Below, one piece after another: positions 30,013 to 39,905 of a DNA stretch of 64,000 nt. The stretch's first letter is position 1, and each line of letters begins with the position of its first letter. The stretch covers positions 2,385,659 through 2,449,658 of the forward strand of contig CP091278.1 of the NCBI GenBank assembly GCA_021650895.1, read 5' to 3'. The DNA comes from Candidatus Jettenia sp. (GTDB lineage: Bacteria; Planctomycetota; Brocadiia; Brocadiales; Brocadiaceae). Below the pieces are notes generated by a model. It was not told the origin of the DNA and did no database searches. It saw nothing but the letters and a program-made list of their open reading frames with translations. The translations under genes were made by a program, and so were the position numbers.

Positions 30013-31047
30013 ATGCGGAGATTAAAAGTTGCAGTTGTTGGTGTTGGGCATTTAGGGAAAGAGCATGCAAGGGTATGTGCCGAGCTGCCCGGAGTAGAAC
30101 TGGTTGGTGTAGTCGATATACATATTGGTCAAGCAGAGAAAATTGCTCAACTGCACAATACGTGCTATTTTACAAATTATAAGGACATAATCGGTAAAGT
30201 TTCGGCCGTAAGTATCGCAGTACCTACGAAATCGCATTATGCTATTGCAAAGGAATTTCTGCAGAATGGCATACACGTTATGATCGAAAAGCCAATGACA
30301 GGGACGATACCTGAGGCGAAGGAATTAATACATATCAGTAAAACAAAAGGCGTGATACTTCAGGCAGGATATATTGAACGATTTAATCCTGCTATAGCTG
30401 CGATTAAAAAATTTTCTATTAATCCAAAATTTATTGAATGTCATCGTCTAAGCCCATTTACCTTCCGTTCGGCAGATATTGGTGTGGTATTAGATCTGAT
30501 GATACATGATATTGATATCATTTTACATATCACAGGTTCTAAAGTAAAAAAATTCGATGCTGTAGGAGTAAATGTTATCTCCGATAAAGAAGATATAGCG
30601 AATGTTCGTCTTCAGTTTGAAAACGGATGCGTGGCAAATATAACAGCAAGCCGCGTCTCTCTTACCCCTATGCGTAAAATGAGATTATTCTCTGAGGATT
30701 CATATATTTCTGTTGATTATCAGAAAAAGGATGCGTTACTATATAAAAAATCACCTAAATTAACCTTAAAGGCATTGAATGTCTCTGAGATGGATGTTTC
30801 TACTATCGCAGATCTGAAAAGTTATGTATTTGGCGACCTGTTAAAGATAGAGCATATCAAGATGGATGACTATGAACCGCTCAAAAAAGAGCTGGAATCT
30901 TTTGTGAATTGTATTGTAGAGCATAAAGAGCCTCTTGTTTCAGGTGAAGAAGGCTTAAAAGCTATACAGGTCGCAAACGATATTGTATGCGAGATAGAAA
31001 GAAATCTTAAGCTGGCCCATATGCCAAGTATGGAGGACGAATTATGA
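30013..31047 (+). CDS. Gfo/Idh/MocA-family NAD(P)-dependent oxidoreductase
   Basis: 344 aa. N-terminal Rossmann fold KVAVVGVGHLGKEHARVCAE, the EKPMTGT block (Lys of the E-K-P motif, near 94) and a C-terminal alpha/beta domain with QAGYIERFNPAI and DLMIHDIDI. Position right after lpxA resembles GnnA, which oxidises UDP-GlcNAc at C3 for 3-amino-lipid A in some bacteria; no GnnB aminotransferase is adjacent, so this is an inference. Overlaps the radical SAM gene by 4 bp. Confidence 0.85.
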   Translation: MRRLKVAVVGVGHLGKEHARVCAELPGVELVGVVDIHIGQAEKIAQLHNTCYFTNYKDIIGKVSAVSIAVPTKSHYAIAKEFLQNGIHVMIEKPMTGTIPEAKELIHISKTKGVILQAGYIERFNPAIAAIKKFSINPKFIECHRLSPFTFRSADIGVVLDLMIHDIDIILHITGSKVKKFDAVGVNVISDKEDIANVRLQFENGCVANITASRVSLTPMRKMRLFSEDSYISVDYQKKDALLYKKSPKLTLKALNVSEMDVSTIADLKSYVFGDLLKIEHIKMDDYEPLKKELESFVNCIVEHKEPLVSGEEGLKAIQVANDIVCEIERNLKLAHMPSMEDEL

Positions 31048-32285
31048 CATCATTTGATTTTTTGCATATCGATGCTGAAATTATTGGAGGAAAGGTTGTT
31101 GGGAAGGCAGGAGGGGTGCTGGGCAAGATGCTACAGCCCTATGTAGATCAATTTTTTGAAAAGATCAATTCCTTAAAAGTAATTGCAAAAAAGAATGGAA
31201 TGCAGGTATATAATCTCTATAATCCGCCATTCCCCAGTCAGGCAGGAATGAGATTTCTGGAAAGAAAGTTAAGAATGATGCTCTCTAAAATGGCATTCCC
31301 TGTTACCGCTAATTTAGCCATAACGCATAAATGCCAGTGCCAGTGTATTCACTGCAGTGCAGATCCATTTATTGACCCCGCCAAGAAAGAGCTTACGGTC
31401 GAGGAGATAAAAAAAGTTGTTGATGGTGCATTAGACCTTGGCGCAAGTCTGGTTATTTATGTAGGCGGAGAGCCTTTGCTTCGCGAAGAGCTTTATGAAC
31501 TCATTCATTATGTAGATAAGACCAAGGCTATTCCTATGATATTTACGAACGGATTGCTCCTGACGGAAGAGAATGTCCAGAAGCTTGCCAATGCAGGCCT
31601 ATTCTCGCTCAATATTTCTATAGATAGCAGTGAACCTGAACTACACAATGAGTTCAGAGCGGTACCCGGTTGTTATCAAAAAGCATTTGAAGGAGCTGAA
31701 CGTTGCCGGAGAGCTGGCATCTTAACAGGTATTTCTACCTATGCGACCGGCGAAAGTATCAAGACAGGCAAGGTCGAAAAGCTTTTAAAGATCGCGCAGG
31801 AGCAGGGTTTTTCTGAGGTTACTATTTTTGATTGCATACCTTCAGGCCGATTCTTAAAAGATACATCAAAAATACTGACAGCGGAAGACCGGAAACAATT
31901 GATTGCGCTTACAAAGAAATATCACGAGATGGATCATCCCATGGGGATCAATTGCATGTCAATTATTAATTCTCCAAGGGGAGTGGGCTGCTATGGAGCA
32001 CAATCGCAATTTTATATGACAGCATATGGCGATATCAATCCCTGTGATTTCAACCCGATTAATTTCGGAAATGTACGTGAGATGTCTATTCAGGAAATAT
32101 GGAAAAAGATGGTCACGCATCCGGATTTTAGCAAGAGATATCCTACATGCCGGATGCAAAGTAAGGCATACCGAAAGAAGTATATTGATCCACTTCCGAA
32201 AGATGTAAGACTACCGGTAAAAATAGAAGATATTGCGCCTGTTGAGCTGGCGGAACAGGAGACTAATCTTGCAGGAGTTCGTTAG
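31044..32285 (+). CDS. Radical SAM/SPASM-like protein
   Basis: 413 aa. The first ~85 residues form a separate N-terminal region (GGKVVGKAGGVLGKMLQPYV). The radical SAM core follows with HKCQCQCIHC (C-x3-C-x2-C, near 95), VIYVGGEPLLREEL and LFSLNISIDSSEPELH. C-terminal cysteines in GVGCYGAQ, DINPCDF and YPTCRMQ are arranged as in SPASM-type auxiliary Fe-S domains. It is translationally coupled to the oxidoreductase in the lipid A operon, so an envelope lipid or sugar substrate is possible but unproven. Confidence 0.85.
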   Translation: MTSFDFLHIDAEIIGGKVVGKAGGVLGKMLQPYVDQFFEKINSLKVIAKKNGMQVYNLYNPPFPSQAGMRFLERKLRMMLSKMAFPVTANLAITHKCQCQCIHCSADPFIDPAKKELTVEEIKKVVDGALDLGASLVIYVGGEPLLREELYELIHYVDKTKAIPMIFTNGLLLTEENVQKLANAGLFSLNISIDSSEPELHNEFRAVPGCYQKAFEGAERCRRAGILTGISTYATGESIKTGKVEKLLKIAQEQGFSEVTIFDCIPSGRFLKDTSKILTAEDRKQLIALTKKYHEMDHPMGINCMSIINSPRGVGCYGAQSQFYMTAYGDINPCDFNPINFGNVREMSIQEIWKKMVTHPDFSKRYPTCRMQSKAYRKKYIDPLPKDVRLPVKIEDIAPVELAEQETNLAGVR

Positions 32286-32936: not shown

Positions 32937-33239
32937 TTGGAGCCAATACATCTGGAAGAAAAGATAAAATTTAATAAAGAGCATTTTATCCCAAATATCC
33001 TTTATGCCTCTCCGAAGGTAAAAATGCCCCTTATTTGTATGGAACCCGGACAGGAAATTCCATCTCATGGAGGGCACAGCGTGGGCATATTTTATGTGAA
33101 GGAAGGTAAAGGGATCTTCACCCTCGATAATCAGAAAATTGATATGGAAAAAGGAACCGTAGTTATTGCTCCGGAAGGCGCATCCAGGGGAATGAGATGT
33201 GTGGAACGAATGGTTGTTTTAGCTATGAGTGCGGGGTAA
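32937..33239 (+). CDS. Single-domain cupin, first of tandem pair
   Basis: 100 aa cupin. Motif 1, GQEIPSHGGHSVGIFYVKEGKG, has two His but motif 2, GTVVIAPEGASRGM, has Ser/Arg where the metal-binding His should be. TTG start at 32937: the frame is closed two codons upstream and no ATG is available; GAGGAGG lies about 15 bp before. It lies 4 bp before a paralogous cupin. No substrate can be assigned. Confidence 0.75.
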   Translation: MEPIHLEEKIKFNKEHFIPNILYASPKVKMPLICMEPGQEIPSHGGHSVGIFYVKEGKGIFTLDNQKIDMEKGTVVIAPEGASRGMRCVERMVVLAMSAG

Positions 33240-33243
33240 AAGA

Positions 33244-33552
33244 ATGGGAAAAATTGATGTAAAAGAACAGATAGAATTTTCAAAAGAAAAATATGTATCA
33301 AAGATCCTGTTTGATAGTGATAAAGCACGGGTTGTATTGTTCTGTTTGGAGAAAGGGCAGGAGGTGCCTTTGCATACAGTGGAACCTCAGGTGATAATGC
33401 TGGTAATTTCAGGAAAAGGTTCATTTACTGTAGGAGACAAGATATATAAAGTTAAACCAGATTCTGTAGCGATTTGTGAGAGCATGGAAGCGCACGGGAT
33501 GAAGGCTGATGAGCAGATGGTTGTCCTTGCTTCAATCGTACCGCGGCCATAA
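33244..33552 (+). CDS. Single-domain cupin, second of tandem pair
   Basis: 102 aa, similar along its length to the preceding cupin (IDVKEQIEFSKEKYVSKIL versus IHLEEKIKFNKEHFIPNIL). Motif 1 keeps one His (GQEVPLHTVEPQV) and motif 2 has a His (CESMEAHGMKA). The two copies thus split the usual metal ligands between them. The ATG at 33244 is preferred, with GGGGTAAAAG before it. Confidence 0.78.
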   Translation: MGKIDVKEQIEFSKEKYVSKILFDSDKARVVLFCLEKGQEVPLHTVEPQVIMLVISGKGSFTVGDKIYKVKPDSVAICESMEAHGMKADEQMVVLASIVPRP

Positions 33553-33579: not shown

Positions 33580-33816
33580 ATGAGTGAGAAATCACCCGTT
33601 ACGTTAGATGTTAGAAATATTGTGCCCAGAGAAAGACATCCGAAGATTTTTAATACTTTTGATGGCCTCAAAAAAGGAGAGATGATGGTCCTGATAAACG
33701 ATCATGACCCCAAGCCGTTAAAGTATCAGCTTGATGCAGAACGAAAGGGGCAAATGGATTGGAAGTATATTGAACAAGGACCGGAAATGTGGAAGGTAGA
33801 AATAACAAAAAAATAA
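33580..33816 (+). CDS. DUF2249-domain protein
   Basis: 78 aa. TLDVRNIVPRERHPKIFNTF, LKKGEMMVLINDHDPKPLKY and WKVEITKK match the DUF2249 domain closely. This domain is common next to nitric oxide/nitrous oxide reduction genes and hemerythrin-like proteins; its chemistry is not known. AAGGAG precedes the ATG. Between the cupins and the HAO-like cytochrome. Confidence 0.88.
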   Translation: MSEKSPVTLDVRNIVPRERHPKIFNTFDGLKKGEMMVLINDHDPKPLKYQLDAERKGQMDWKYIEQGPEMWKVEITKK

Positions 33817-33898: not shown

Positions 33899-35638
33899 AT
33901 GATCAAGGAAGTAAGATGTATCGTCTCTATAATAATGATTGCTCTGTTTGCCTGTATCGGTTTTGGCTGCGAAAATACGAGTGCGAGAAAAGCAGAAGCT
34001 GTTACCGCGCCCAAAACAACGAAAGGGACAATAGAAAAGCCGGTAGTTACTCAAGCTGTTCAGGAATCAGTTGCTGCTCAACCGAAGGAAGAAGTAAAAA
34101 AGGAAGAAGTAAAACAAGAAGCTCCTGCCCCTGAGGAGCAGGAGGAGCGTAAGGAATCGCATGCCGGCTGCCCATCAAAACAGGAAGAAATGGCTTCTCA
34201 TCCAAAAGATACGAGGACAATTCAGGAAATTATTTCTCAGATAACAGGGGAAAAAATAGGCCCTGATAACTCTGGTGATCTCTATCACAACGGATTAACA
34301 GCAACCTATACAGGACCAAAAGAGGTATTCCCCGGTGAAGGTAAATTCGGGAAGTTATTCAGCTTTTTGCCTATTATAAGGTGGTATGATCCGGACCATT
34401 ATTATACGCCAAATATGGCAATTTCAGGAGAGTTTAAACACGAAGAATGTATTATGTGCCATACGGTGCAAACGCCGGGTATTGTTGCACAGTGGAAGAA
34501 AAGCAAGCATGCATCAACAGAAAAGGGTGTAGTGGGATGTGATAAATGCCATGGGAACAATCATCAGCAGCTCTACATGCCTTCCTGGCGACACTGCGGT
34601 GAATGTCATCCGGAGCAGCAATCAGGCCATCGTGATGGCAAGTTAGGCTCACACGCATATGCGTTTCACGTAAATGTAGTAGAGACCCCGTGGCAGATAG
34701 CAAAACCGGCAGAAGAGGTAACCGCCTGTGCGACGTGCCATGGTATAGCTGAAAATCGGTGTGATGGATGCCACACAAGACATGACTTTTCTCTGGCGGA
34801 GGCAAGAAAGCCCAATAACTGCGGTATCTGTCATACAGGTTTGGACCACTATGAGTATGAGATGTACAAGGAATCATACCACGGGATGATTTATGAATCT
34901 GAACAACATACCTGGGATTGGACGAAACCTCTGAAACCGGCAAACTACAAGACCCCTACCTGTGCATTTTGTCATATGAAGGATGGTGAACACAACGCAC
35001 AGAAGGCGTCTACCATCTACAGTCATATGGGTACATCTCTGGTAGACCGGGGAGCGCCGAAATTTAAAGAGGAGAGACAAAATTGGATTAATACCTGTAA
35101 GGGATGTCACTCACCCAGATTTGCAGCAGATCAGCTAAATGCTATGGATGAGGCCGTAAAGCTCAGTTTTACCAAATGGCGTGAGGCTATGAAGGTCGTA
35201 ATGGATCTTTACAATGATGGCATGCTGGATCCCATGCCAAACGATTTGGCGCCCGACTATGCTGGACATTATACCTTTAGTCTGTTAGGTGGCGAGGGAA
35301 GAATGTATAACGTTTCCGACATAGAGCGAACCTCCTTTGAGATGCTTGTCTATGTAACCAATGCCGTGTACAAGGCGATGGCGCATGGCGCTATGTATGG
35401 TGCTACTTACGGGAAAGGCGCTTTCTTGCAAGATCGTTGGCTTGTTCAGGTGAAGAGCGAGGCCAGCCGGTTAAGAAGATTAAGGGCGCTGGAAGATAAG
35501 GTAGGTATAAAACATAAGGCATATGATTTCTGGAAGCACGGCGAGTATACCGATTTACTTTTAGGTTGGAGAAGAAAGCCAGGCGATGTAGATAAATCAG
35601 CTTGTAAACATGAGGGTGAAAATTGTCTGGTTGATTAA
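33899..35638 (+). CDS. Octaheme cytochrome c of the hydroxylamine oxidoreductase family
   Basis: 579 aa from the ATG at 33899, preceded by AAGGAGGGAAAGG. N-terminal signal ending FGC (weak lipobox), then a charged low-complexity linker (about 25-100) and eight CxxCH motifs with first Cys at about 184, 214, 233, 277, 288, 308, 355 and 400, the HAO count and order. After the last heme come helices with AVYKAMAHGAMYGATYG (about 491-505). Oxidative HAOs covalently tie heme 4 to a C-terminal Tyr; members without it can reduce nitrite. Whether Tyr500/504 or another residue fills that place needs a structural alignment. Likely located in the anammoxosome lumen. A nitrite- or N-oxide-handling role fits the neighbouring FNT channels. 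Confidence 0.88.
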   Translation: MIKEVRCIVSIIMIALFACIGFGCENTSARKAEAVTAPKTTKGTIEKPVVTQAVQESVAAQPKEEVKKEEVKQEAPAPEEQEERKESHAGCPSKQEEMASHPKDTRTIQEIISQITGEKIGPDNSGDLYHNGLTATYTGPKEVFPGEGKFGKLFSFLPIIRWYDPDHYYTPNMAISGEFKHEECIMCHTVQTPGIVAQWKKSKHASTEKGVVGCDKCHGNNHQQLYMPSWRHCGECHPEQQSGHRDGKLGSHAYAFHVNVVETPWQIAKPAEEVTACATCHGIAENRCDGCHTRHDFSLAEARKPNNCGICHTGLDHYEYEMYKESYHGMIYESEQHTWDWTKPLKPANYKTPTCAFCHMKDGEHNAQKASTIYSHMGTSLVDRGAPKFKEERQNWINTCKGCHSPRFAADQLNAMDEAVKLSFTKWREAMKVVMDLYNDGMLDPMPNDLAPDYAGHYTFSLLGGEGRMYNVSDIERTSFEMLVYVTNAVYKAMAHGAMYGATYGKGAFLQDRWLVQVKSEASRLRRLRALEDKVGIKHKAYDFWKHGEYTDLLLGWRRKPGDVDKSACKHEGENCLVD

Positions 35639-36551: not shown

Positions 36552-36587
36552 AATGTCCAGCTTCTTTAAATAGTGAGGTATTTGGCA

Positions 36588-37682
36588 ATGAGTGTTATGA
36601 GAAATACAATCAAGACATTCCATCCTGCTTATTTTGCAATGGTAATGTCAACAGGCATAATTTCGATCGCTTCTAATCTTCTTGGTTTTAACGGTATTGC
36701 GTATGGACTCTTTTACTTAAATATCGTTGCATATACAATTATTGTATCGCTGCAATTATTGCGGGTAAGGATGTTTTGGAGCAATTTATACAGCGACCTT
36801 TCTAATCCCAAATTAAGTCTGGTATTTTTTACCACAGTTGCAGCCACCAATGTGCTTGGGGCACAGTTTGTTACGGTATTTAATCAGCCGGAAATTGCCA
36901 AGGTGTTCTGGTATTTTGGCATATTTTTATGGACATCGGTTTCTCTATCCACATTCAGTATTCTCTTTATAAAATGTGACCAAAGAATTGAGGTGGTGTT
37001 GCATGGCGGATGGCTTATAGCTACCGTAGGCACCCAGTCTCTGGCGGTTTTGGGTGCATTGCTTGCGCCTAAATATGGGGATGCCGGCAGTTTTGTGTTG
37101 TTTTCTTCTTTTGCCTGGTGGATGATCGGCTCATTTCTGTATATGATACTCATTACCTTAATCATTTACCGGCTCGTATTCTTTAAAGTATCTCCCGATG
37201 CGTTAGTACCACCCTACTGGATTAATATGGGTGCACTCGCCATAACAACCCTGGCAGGCTCAATCTTATGCATACAGATTCCTAAAATAGGCGGTCCCTA
37301 TACTGATTTCCTGGGATTTACAAAAGGATTTACCCTGCTTTTCTGGTCATTTGGCACCTGGTGGATACCATTCCTGATAATTATGGGGATATGGAAATAT
37401 ATCTTCAATAAAACACAATTTAAGTACACGCCGCTTTACTGGGGTATGGTCTTCCCTTTAGGCATGTATACAGCGTGTACCATAAGGCTTTCACAAGCCA
37501 TTCAAATACCCTTTATTGCCAATATCTCAAAATATTTTATCTACGCCGCATTTATTGCATGGGCTTTTATATTTTATAGTATGATACGTTCCATGATAAA
37601 AGCAATTATCACAAAAGAACCTGTTGCACAAAAAGAGGGAAAGATTGCCGAACCTCAAATGATCCCTGTTGGTAAGGGTTAA
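36588..37682 (+). CDS. TDT/SLAC1-TehA family transporter
   Basis: 364 aa with about ten transmembrane segments. It begins TIKTFHPAYFAMVMSTGIISI, the conserved first helix of the TDT (TehA/Mae1/SLAC1) family, and has typical blocks such as GTWWIPFLIIMGIWK. Family members carry C4-dicarboxylates, sulfite or small anions such as nitrate and chloride. The ATG at 36588, with GAGG 9 bp before it, is preferred over the upstream GTG. Its place between an Fe-S-repair-like gene and two FNT channels suggests an anion linked to nitrogen metabolism (inference). Confidence 0.82.
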   Translation: MSVMRNTIKTFHPAYFAMVMSTGIISIASNLLGFNGIAYGLFYLNIVAYTIIVSLQLLRVRMFWSNLYSDLSNPKLSLVFFTTVAATNVLGAQFVTVFNQPEIAKVFWYFGIFLWTSVSLSTFSILFIKCDQRIEVVLHGGWLIATVGTQSLAVLGALLAPKYGDAGSFVLFSSFAWWMIGSFLYMILITLIIYRLVFFKVSPDALVPPYWINMGALAITTLAGSILCIQIPKIGGPYTDFLGFTKGFTLLFWSFGTWWIPFLIIMGIWKYIFNKTQFKYTPLYWGMVFPLGMYTACTIRLSQAIQIPFIANISKYFIYAAFIAWAFIFYSMIRSMIKAIITKEPVAQKEGKIAEPQMIPVGKG

Positions 37683-38065
37683 AATTCATAGTAAGATCTT
37701 ATGGGCAAACTTGCTTTTACATTAAGTTGTCTTTAGCCTTGCCTACGTGTAATTGAAATTCCTATGCATTTACATGAGACCTTTGCCGACTTTTTGGATA
37801 AAATATTTCAGTGTAGGGGCTGGAAATCTTCGGCCTCTGCAAAGTAACTTGTTCTTGTTTCTCATACTACTACAATCATTCTTGCAAGCCTGCTCAGCAA
37901 AGCAATCTGTGTTTTTTGATGTATTTTCTATAAGCATTCTTGAAATTTGCACTAAATATTTAGTATAAATAAATTATTTATAAATATTTATTAAAGAAAG
38001 GTTGTGCCGTGTGATAGAAATGTTCATGTTCCGTAATCTCATACTACAATAGAAAGGAGGGGTTT
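37683..38065. other. Intergenic region before the FNT genes
   Basis: Contains a half copy of the dispersed palindrome (CTTTAGCCTTGCCTACGTG then AATTGAAATTCCT, 37731-37763), a perfect palindrome ACTAAATATTTAGT (37951-37964) and, directly before the gene, AGAAAGGAGGGG. No gene is supportable here. Confidence 0.5.
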
Positions 38066-38965
38066 ATGTCCAATGCGCAGAATGCAAATCCAGGCAGTCA
38101 GGAGTATGCTATACCTGTCATAGAGATCGATGCCTATGCGCCGGCAAAAATGGCGGATAGAGTAGGAATGATAGGGGTTGCGAAATCAAAGCTCAGTACC
38201 TTAACATTGCTTGCTCTCAGCATCCTTGCCGGTGTTTTTATTGCGTTAGGCACACAACTTGCGATGCTTGTAACTCATACAGCGACCTCTAATTATGGTC
38301 TTAATCAGTTAGTAGGCGGGGCTGCTTTTACTATGGCCTTAATTTTAATCGTAATTGCCGGTGCAGAGCTTTTTACGGGAAATTGCCTTATTGCAATGTC
38401 CTTTATGGCACGGAAAATTACTGGCAGAGACCTTACGAGAAATCTTATTATTGCGTTTATTGGTAATTTTATCGGTGCGCTAACCCTTGTGTTGTGGATA
38501 TACAATTCCGGACAATGGATGATAAACAATCATCTCTTAGGCGCTAAGATTGTTCTTGCTGCCAATGATAAAGTAAATATACCATTTAGTGCTGCTTTTG
38601 CAAGGGGCGTGCTTTGCAATGCCCTCGTATGTTTAGGTATCTGGCTCTCGTATAGTGGTAGAAGTAATATGGATAAAATATTGGCGCTACTATGGCCTAT
38701 ATCCTGTCTCATAGCATCCGGATTTGAGCATTGTGTTGTGAATATGTGGCTTATTCCTATGGCGCTTGTTCTCAAGGGTAATGGCTCAGTGCTGGCTGCC
38801 GCCGAGAAAATACAGGACGGAAAATTGGATCTTTCAAACCTTACTTTTTTCAAAGGATTTTTGATTGATAATATGGTTCCTGTTGTTCTTGGAAATTTAT
38901 TCGGTGGTATAGTTCTCGTTGCAGGTGTGTACTGGTTTATATACTTACGTCCATCAAAGAGATAA
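38066..38965 (+). CDS. Formate/nitrite transporter (FNT) family channel, copy 1
   Basis: 299 aa with six transmembrane helices. Signatures: GAELFTGNCLIAMSF, ARGVLCNALVCLGIWLS and SGFEHCVVNMWLIP, the last with the central pore His. FNT channels (FocA, NirC, HCN/HSC) move formate, nitrite or hydrosulfide. AAAGGAGGGG precedes the ATG. The N-terminal extension of about 40 residues (VIEIDAYAPAKMADRVG) is shared with copy 2. In an anammox-like cell nitrite is the likely substrate. Confidence 0.9.
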   Translation: MSNAQNANPGSQEYAIPVIEIDAYAPAKMADRVGMIGVAKSKLSTLTLLALSILAGVFIALGTQLAMLVTHTATSNYGLNQLVGGAAFTMALILIVIAGAELFTGNCLIAMSFMARKITGRDLTRNLIIAFIGNFIGALTLVLWIYNSGQWMINNHLLGAKIVLAANDKVNIPFSAAFARGVLCNALVCLGIWLSYSGRSNMDKILALLWPISCLIASGFEHCVVNMWLIPMALVLKGNGSVLAAAEKIQDGKLDLSNLTFFKGFLIDNMVPVVLGNLFGGIVLVAGVYWFIYLRPSKR

Positions 38966-38984
38966 GAGAAAAGGAGAACTAAGA

Positions 38985-39905
38985 ATGGCAGAAAATAATG
39001 TTCCGAAAGCTATACAAATAATAGATATAGATGCATATTCACCTCCGCAGATTGCGACCCGCATCGATAAGGTTGCTGCTTTAAAGGCAAAATTAAGTTT
39101 CGCACAAACCTTTTTGCTGGGTATTTTAGCTGGAGTTTATATCGGTATCGGCGCACAATTTGCCACATTAGTTATCAGTGATTCTACTTTGCACTTCGGA
39201 CTGAATGCAGTAATAGCAGGTATTGTCTTCTCTCTTGGACTTATGCTTGTAGTCATCGGCGGTGCAGAGCTTTTTACAGGAAACAGTCTGATGATTATGG
39301 GATACGTGAGCAAGAGGATTTCAACACGTGATATGATGAATAACTGGATTATAGCGTATACAGGGAATTTTATTGGTAGTCTTACCATGGTCTATTGGAT
39401 GTACAATGCACATCAATTTGAATTCTTTCATAATATGGTTGGCGCAAAGGCATTGCTCATCGCTCATACAAAAGTTAATTTGCCTTTTAAAGCAGTCCTT
39501 GCAAGAGGCGTTCTTTGTAACGCTATGGTATGCCTGGCTGTCTGGCTCTGTTTTAGCGGTAGAAGCGTTGCAGATAAGGTGCTCTCCATTGTCTTCCCTA
39601 TTGGTGGATTCGTTGCCAGCGGCTTTGAACACTGTGTCGCAAATATGTATTTTATTCCCATGGGTGTAGTGTTACGAAACAATGCTGCTGTCGTTGCTGC
39701 AGCCGAAAAAATGGCAGGAAAAACCCTGGATCTTTCTCAACTTACCTGGAAGGGGTTTTTTATCAATAATCTTATTCCTGTCACTTTCGGAAATATCGTG
39801 GGTGGAGTTGTTCTGGTTGGTATCGTATTCTGGTTTGTTTATTTGCGGCCGCACATCAGTGTGTCTCTGAATGTCAAACAGGACTTTTTTAACGAAAATA
39901 AATAG
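38985..39905 (+). CDS. Formate/nitrite transporter (FNT) family channel, copy 2
   Basis: 306 aa, a close paralogue of the gene ending 19 bp upstream: IIDIDAYSPPQIATRIDKV matches its N-terminus, and GAELFTGNSLMIMGY, ARGVLCNAMVCLAVWLC and SGFEHCVANMYFIP match its signatures. The ATG at 38985, after AAGGAG, is preferred to a start inside the previous gene. The pair looks like a tandem duplication; both keep the pore His. Confidence 0.9.
   Translation: MAENNVPKAIQIIDIDAYSPPQIATRIDKVAALKAKLSFAQTFLLGILAGVYIGIGAQFATLVISDSTLHFGLNAVIAGIVFSLGLMLVVIGGAELFTGNSLMIMGYVSKRISTRDMMNNWIIAYTGNFIGSLTMVYWMYNAHQFEFFHNMVGAKALLIAHTKVNLPFKAVLARGVLCNAMVCLAVWLCFSGRSVADKVLSIVFPIGGFVASGFEHCVANMYFIPMGVVLRNNAAVVAAAEKMAGKTLDLSQLTWKGFFINNLIPVTFGNIVGGVVLVGIVFWFVYLRPHISVSLNVKQDFFNENK

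What the first reader, a model, noticed from the sequence alone, without database searches (positions are those of the whole stretch)
33899..35638. Does this HAO-family protein carry the heme-4 Tyr cross-link?
Oxidative HAO and hydrazine dehydrogenase have a C-terminal Tyr covalently tied to heme 4 (P460); members lacking it reduce nitrite. Here, after heme 8, the region AVYKAMAHGAMYGATYG offers Tyr500 and Tyr504. I cannot place them by eye. The direction of the reaction depends on this. It also has an unusually long charged linker (about 25-100) between a lipobox-like signal and the first heme.
Basis: partly seen in the sequence, partly recalled or inferred. Interest (0 to 1): 0.6.

Follow-up and report, generated by a model that had tools for sequence, protein, structure and literature searches.

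The report
Oxidative-type HAO, cross-link tyrosine present
This anammox-bacterium enzyme carries the tyrosine that in its studied relatives is welded to the catalytic heme, so it most likely strips electrons from hydroxylamine rather than reducing nitrite; it belongs to a recognised but still unassayed family.

Summary
The ORF at 33899-35638 (579 aa, good ribosome-binding site) is an octaheme HAO-family protein of a Brocadiaceae anammox genome. Four alignment methods place Tyr504 on the cross-linking Tyr467 of Nitrosomonas HAO; three of them also place it on Tyr451 of Kuenenia HAO and chain index 462 of hydrazine dehydrogenase. The nitrite-reducing HAOr has Trp there. Tyr500 is not the cross-link position. 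Eight CxxCH motifs, seven shared non-motif His (presumed distal ligands), the catalytic Asp316-His317 pair and the Kuenenia-type Met377 are kept. Tyr504 is present in every full-length orthologue but one. A nitrite-reductase role is therefore disfavoured, though not excluded: cross-linked Kuenenia HAO reduces nitrite in vitro. The protein is neither the genome's main HAO (a separate kustc1061 orthologue exists) nor HDH; it is the probable orthologue of uncharacterised kusta0043. The charged linker is a clade feature, poorly conserved in sequence; the lipobox is not conserved. Upstream genes (SPASM radical SAM, cupin, DUF2249) are syntenic across Brocadiaceae. The family's oxidative prediction is already published. 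Surprises lie outside the window: a sister paralogue with Asp-His replaced by Glu-Gln in 30/30 genomes, and one orthologue that lost active-site residues.

The parts
33899..35638 (+). octaheme HAO-family protein (probable kusta0043 orthologue), 579 aa
33881..33888 (+). ribosome-binding site AAGGAGGG upstream of ATG 33899
   Evidence: sequence
33899..33970 (+). N-terminal signal/anchor segment, residues 1-24; Cys19 and Cys24 fit the loose lipobox pattern, not conserved in all orthologues
33971..34213 (+). charged low-complexity linker, residues 25-105
   Evidence: 37% charged; median 42% identity to orthologues against 88% for the catalytic part
34448..34462 (+). heme 1 CxxCH (C184-H188)
34538..34552 (+). 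heme 2 CxxCH (C214-H218)
34595..34609 (+). heme 3 CxxCH (C233-H237)
34727..34741 (+). heme 4 CxxCH (C277-H281), position of the catalytic P460 heme
   Evidence: alignment to NeHAO/KsHAO
34760..34774 (+). heme 5 CxxCH (C288-H292)
34820..34834 (+). heme 6 CxxCH (C308-H312)
34844..34849 (+). Asp316-His317, catalytic pair equivalent to NeHAO Asp267-His268
34961..34975 (+). heme 7 CxxCH (C355-H359)
35027..35029 (+). Met377, equivalent to Met323 of Kuenenia HAO (which replaces a Tyr of Nitrosomonas HAO)
35096..35110 (+). heme 8 CxxCH (C400-H404)
35396..35398 (+). Tyr500, not the cross-link position (Asn in HDH, Gly in NeHAO)
35408..35410 (+). Tyr504 (TAC), position of the heme-4 cross-link
35603..35626 (+). 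C-terminal CxHxGxxC motif, conserved in Brocadiaceae orthologues
31044..32285 (+). SPASM radical SAM protein (AhbD/NirJ-like, far below family cut-offs), syntenic upstream gene
32937..33239 (+). cupin 1, syntenic upstream gene
33229..33552 (+). cupin 2, present in some orthologous loci
33580..33816 (+). DUF2249 protein directly upstream of the HAO gene

Best explanation
It is a second, P460-type (oxidative) octaheme hydroxylamine dehydrogenase of an anammox bacterium, probably orthologous to Kuenenia kusta0043. Exported across a membrane (in anammox bacteria presumably into the anammoxosome) and carrying a flexible charged linker that may hold it off the membrane or a partner, it most likely forms a homotrimer in which Tyr504 of one subunit is covalently attached to heme 4 of its neighbour. 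With Asp316-His317 as the proton relay and Met377 over the heme as in Kuenenia HAO, it would oxidise hydroxylamine by three electrons to NO and pass the electrons through its hemes to a small cytochrome c. Shown here: the residues, the eight heme sites, the orthologue group, the conservation and the synteny. Inferred: the cross-link itself, the trimer, the substrate, the product, the location and the role of the linker.
For: HMMER, MAFFT, BLOSUM62 local and HHalign alignments all put Tyr504 on NeHAO Tyr467; HMMER, MAFFT and the local alignment do the same for KsHAO Tyr451 and HDH. Nitrite-reducing HAOr (6h5l) has Trp in that column. Tyr504 is in all full-length orthologues except L098 (28 of 30 rows in one set, 26 of 27 in the other, the remaining absences being truncated loci). 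Asp316, His317 and Met377 are conserved likewise. Seven non-motif His shared with NeHAO, KsHAO and HDH fit seven bis-His hemes, leaving heme 4 five-coordinate. Identity 58% to KsHAO, 33% to NeHAO, 32% to HAOr. [quoted passage not shown]
Against: No structure of this protein or of an orthologue was found; my AlphaFold model failed (mean pLDDT 35.8), so Tyr504 was placed by sequence alone. The sister paralogue keeps Tyr but has lost the Asp-His pair in 30/30 genomes, so Tyr alone does not define the chemistry. HOX, the closest studied enzyme, can reduce nitrite in vitro (PMC11897245). No published assay of kusta0043 was found in the held library.
Confidence: 0.72

Rival explanations
1. It works in vivo as an NO-forming nitrite reductase despite the Tyr, run in reverse by a low-potential donor.
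For: Cross-linked Kuenenia HOX reduces nitrite with methyl viologen and has been proposed as a nitrite reductase (PMC11897245). In this window two formate/nitrite transporter genes begin about 2.4 kb downstream.
Against: Tyr504 is present; the characterised nitrite-reducing member HAOr lacks it; HOX P460 is described as tuned to oxidation (PMC12485887). The transporters are not found next to the orthologues.
Confidence: 0.1
2. It is an additional hydrazine dehydrogenase, oxidising hydrazine to N2.
For: 48% identity to HDH and the same Tyr, Asp-His and Met residues; the NCBIfam HDH model matches at 3.3e-138.
Against: Scores 461.5 against the HDH equivalog cut-off of 900; lies outside the HDH clade; two true HDH genes already exist in the genome (L006, L007).
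Confidence: 0.12
3. It is a tethered electron-transfer cytochrome in which the active site is vestigial.
For: One orthologue (L098) lost Tyr, changed Asp to Glu and Met to Ala but keeps all eight heme motifs.
Against: The catalytic residues are kept in every other full-length orthologue examined, across several genera.
Confidence: 0.06

Closest known systems
kusta0043 of Kuenenia stuttgartiensis (probably family HAO4 or HAO9 of Okubo et al. 2021)
   Same: Probable orthologue: the matching gene in a Kuenenia-like single-contig genome (G013, L087) encodes 591 aa, the length listed for kusta0043 (PMC3482989); same domain order, linker and active site.
   Different: The Kuenenia-type protein has no lipobox Cys and a differently composed linker. 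The assignment rests on length and homology; the named sequence itself was not read.
Kuenenia HOX/HAO (kustc1061, PDB 4n4j)
   Same: 58% identity, Tyr, Asp-His, Met, eight hemes, HAO-type C-terminal domain.
   Different: Lacks the loop of about 14 residues between hemes 1 and 2, adds the linker and the C-terminal CxHxGxxC; separate clade; this genome has its own kustc1061 orthologue (L004).
Nitrosomonas europaea HAO (PDB 1fgj, 4fas)
   Same: Cross-link Tyr467, Asp267-His268, heme count.
   Different: 33% identity; distal Tyr (published as Tyr358) is Met here, as in Kuenenia HAO.
Kuenenia hydrazine dehydrogenase (kustc0694, PDB 6hif)
   Same: Tyr, Asp-His, Met, heme count; 48% identity.
   Different: Different clade, lacks this linker; the HDH equivalog score is not reached.
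Kuenenia HAOr nitrite reductase (kustc0458, PDB 6h5l)
   Same: Octaheme family, Asp-His pair.
   Different: Trp at the cross-link column; 32% identity; a separate orthologue is present in this genome (L001).

Membership tests
Oxidative (P460) octaheme HAO | eight c-type heme motifs | tested here: met
   8 CxxCH
Oxidative (P460) octaheme HAO | Tyr at the heme-4 cross-link position | tested here: met
   Tyr504 = NeHAO Tyr467 by four aligners
Oxidative (P460) octaheme HAO | Asp-His catalytic pair | tested here: met
   Asp316-His317
Oxidative (P460) octaheme HAO | seven distal His ligands, heme 4 without one | tested here: met
   seven conserved non-motif His besides His317 (204, 222, 252, 295, 328, 365, 496); ligand role inferred from alignment
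Oxidative (P460) octaheme HAO | covalent trimer and 460-nm band | not testable with these tools
   needs purified protein
Oxidative (P460) octaheme HAO | hydroxylamine or hydrazine oxidation | not testable with these tools
   needs an assay
HOX (kustc1061 orthologues) | falls in the clade with KsHAO | tested here: not met
   separate clade (SH-aLRT 99 for its own clade); L004 is the HOX orthologue
Hydrazine dehydrogenase | NCBIfam NF052343 equivalog cut-off 900 | tested here: not met
   461.5 bits; outside the HDH clade
HAOr-type nitrite reductase | absence of the cross-link Tyr | tested here: not met
   Tyr504 present; HAOr has Trp
Lipoprotein | conserved lipobox Cys | tested here: inconclusive
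   loose pattern fits in the window and many Brocadia orthologues; absent from Kuenenia-type L087 and L093

The most novel reading that the evidence does not exclude
The kusta0043 family is a distinct, tethered NO-forming hydroxylamine dehydrogenase whose charged linker and C-terminal Cys-His motif dock it to a membrane or partner complex, with the co-conserved radical SAM, cupin and DUF2249 genes serving its maturation or regulation: a division of labour from soluble HOX not yet described.
Probability: 0.15. Interest if true: 0.5.

Novelty: new member of a known kind. Interest (0 to 1): 0.27.

Why it matters
Anammox genomes carry about ten HAO-like paralogues, and which of them oxidise and which reduce is an open issue for how NO is made. 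Placing the cross-link Tyr moves this one to the oxidative side. The sister family that keeps Tyr but loses Asp-His, and the one orthologue that lost Tyr, Asp and Met together, are natural test cases of how far Tyr alone sets direction.

Tried and rejected
AlphaFold2 on a 16-row alignment gave mean pLDDT 35.8 and was not used for any structural claim; no fold search was run on it. Ferousi 2021, Maalcke 2014 and Okubo 2021 are not held, so the HAO4/HAO9 label could not be fixed. Tyr500 as cross-link candidate: rejected, since HDH has Asn and NeHAO Gly there. Lipoprotein anchoring as a family trait: rejected, not conserved. Nitrite transporters downstream as functional context: rejected as window-specific, since none of the longer orthologous loci has them. 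In the tree, NeHAO and the two outgroup rows have very long branches, so deep branching is not relied on. The HHalign comparison with HAOr is loose at its C-terminal end (offsets there differ from MAFFT) and was not used for the Trp statement.

Full report
What is there. The ORF 33899-35638 on the + strand encodes 579 aa from an ATG preceded by AAGGAGGG. The window lies at 2385659-2449658 of a 3.82-Mb single-contig genome. The genome is taken to be a Brocadiaceae anammox bacterium: its named orthologues come from Candidatus Brocadia, Kuenenia hertensis and Loosdrechtia, and it carries its own HDH and HAO genes. The genus was not established.

Identity. Against solved structures the protein matches Kuenenia-type HAO (6t5e, 4n4j; E about 1e-185), hydrazine dehydrogenase (6hif; 2e-126), Nitrosomonas HAO (4fas; 1e-49) and the HAOr structure 6h5l (1e-41). 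Pfam finds the multiheme domain and the HAO C-terminal domain. The NCBIfam HDH equivalog model is hit at half its cut-off, so it is not HDH.

The Tyr question. HMMER, MAFFT on 92 sequences, a plain BLOSUM62 local alignment and HHalign with an orthologue profile agree on NeHAO: window Tyr504 = Tyr467. HMMER, MAFFT and the local alignment give window Tyr504 = KsHAO Tyr451 = HDH chain index 462. KsHAO numbering was checked by recovering the published Met323 (PMC9500659); NeHAO numbering gives 467 for the Tyr, as in PMC11726666. HAOr has Trp in the column by the local alignment, and its segment there (AHAQQDVSWWWG) holds no Tyr. Tyr500 aligns with Tyr in KsHAO but Asn in HDH and Gly in NeHAO, so it cannot be the cross-link residue. 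In a 16-row orthologue alignment Tyr504, Asp316, His317 and Met377 are invariant. Across the wider sets Tyr504 is present in 28/30 and 26/27 rows, the exceptions being truncated loci and one real loss, L098.

Rest of the active site. Asp316-His317 equals NeHAO Asp267-His268. Met377 equals KsHAO Met323, which replaces a Tyr of NeHAO and is described as the only significant active-site difference between the two (PMC9500659). Eight CxxCH motifs and seven shared non-motif His (204, 222, 252, 295, 328, 365, 496) match the octaheme scheme with a five-coordinate heme 4; the ligand roles are inferred from the alignment.

Own-genome comparison. In the same genome Tyr is found in the HOX orthologue (L004), both HDH copies (L006, L007), the paralogue L003 and, by alignment, L008. 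It is missing in HAOr (L001), the cupredoxin fusion L005, the broken L037 and L038.

Which paralogue. A tree puts the window protein in its own clade (SH-aLRT 99) near the L003 family and a group from other Brocadiales families, separate from HOX (quick method, deep branches not relied on). The orthologue in a 4.4-Mb Kuenenia-like genome (G013) is 591 aa (L087), the length given for kusta0043 (PMC3482989). The 2025 reconstruction (PMC12758564) places HAO4, HAO9, HAO10, HDH and HOX in one subclade of the Tyr-bearing major clade, with reversion only in HAOr, HAO3 and HAO7. So the oxidative prediction for this family is already in print, although I could not fix whether it is HAO4 or HAO9. No published assay of kusta0043 was found; its transcript fell on hydrazine exposure (PMC12053348).

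Linker and N-terminus. Residues 25-105 are 37% charged. Median identity to orthologues is 42% against 88% for residues 107-566, and length varies. This is a tether-like segment conserved in kind, not in sequence. Cys19 and Cys24 fit the loose lipobox pattern, and many Brocadia orthologues fit at the first Cys, but Kuenenia-type L087 and L093 have no match and look like ordinary signal peptides. Tethering is therefore an inference. A C-terminal CxHxGxxC is present in the Brocadiaceae orthologues with an intact C-terminus and absent from L030-L033.

Neighbourhood. lpxC, lpxA, a Gfo/Idh oxidoreductase, a SPASM radical SAM protein, one or two cupins, DUF2249 and the HAO gene keep order and strand in loci L009-L029 and L036, as far as the contigs reach. 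The radical SAM protein is 88-95% identical, more than the full-length HAO. It resembles AhbD/NirJ heme enzymes but scores far below their cut-offs. The SLAC1-family and two formate/nitrite transporters downstream in the window are not found in the longer orthologous loci.

Interpretation. The best reading is a cross-linked P460 enzyme oxidising hydroxylamine to NO. The residues are shown; the covalent bond, trimer, substrate and location are inferred. Nitrite reduction is disfavoured but not excluded, since cross-linked HOX reduces nitrite in vitro and its in vivo role is disputed (PMC11897245 against PMC12485887). A quantum-chemical study in which removing the Tyr costs 6.8 kcal/mol of driving force for the first oxidation (PMC11726666) supports its role in oxidation.

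Verdict. A good question with a clear answer; ordinary within a recognised family.

Noticed in passing
L003/L042 (G000:C1:1334506-1336092, -) and orthologues L043-L071: Sister HAO paralogue keeps the cross-link Tyr in 30/30 genomes but has Glu-Gln instead of the catalytic Asp-His in 30/30; no orthologue was detected in the Kuenenia-like genome G013. It separates the Tyr from the proton relay and deserves its own study.
   Followed up: partly
L098 (G034:C1:694578-696245): One orthologue of the window protein in a single-contig genome has lost Tyr504, with Asp316 to Glu and Met377 to Ala, while all eight CxxCH remain; the sister-paralogue gene of the same genome has an in-frame TAG.
   Followed up: partly
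L039:1610-4120 (-) (same gene as L005): 837-aa open frame joining N-terminal cupredoxin (copper-oxidase/NirK-like, judged by eye) domains to a Tyr-less octaheme HAO; an 837-aa frame also occurs in two relatives, G025 and G047.
   Followed up: no
L037:1454-3252 (-): Another HAO-like gene is split into two overlapping open frames, as if frameshifted; it ends in a hydrophobic C-terminus.
   Followed up: no
window 31044-32285: SPASM radical SAM protein 88-95% identical across Brocadiaceae, more conserved than the HAO it travels with; closest named models are AhbD and NirJ2, far below cut-off.
   Followed up: partly
window 35603-35626: C-terminal CxHxGxxC motif conserved in Brocadiaceae orthologues of the HAO, not seen in the HOX copy L004; possible metal or disulfide site.
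   Followed up: no
window 36573-39905: SLAC1-family transporter and two tandem FocA-like formate/nitrite transporters downstream, not syntenic in the longer orthologous loci.
   Followed up: partly
L006 and L007 (G000:C1 around 1870319 and 2594959): Two near-identical hydrazine dehydrogenase copies that differ at the N-terminus and the extreme C-terminus.
   Followed up: no
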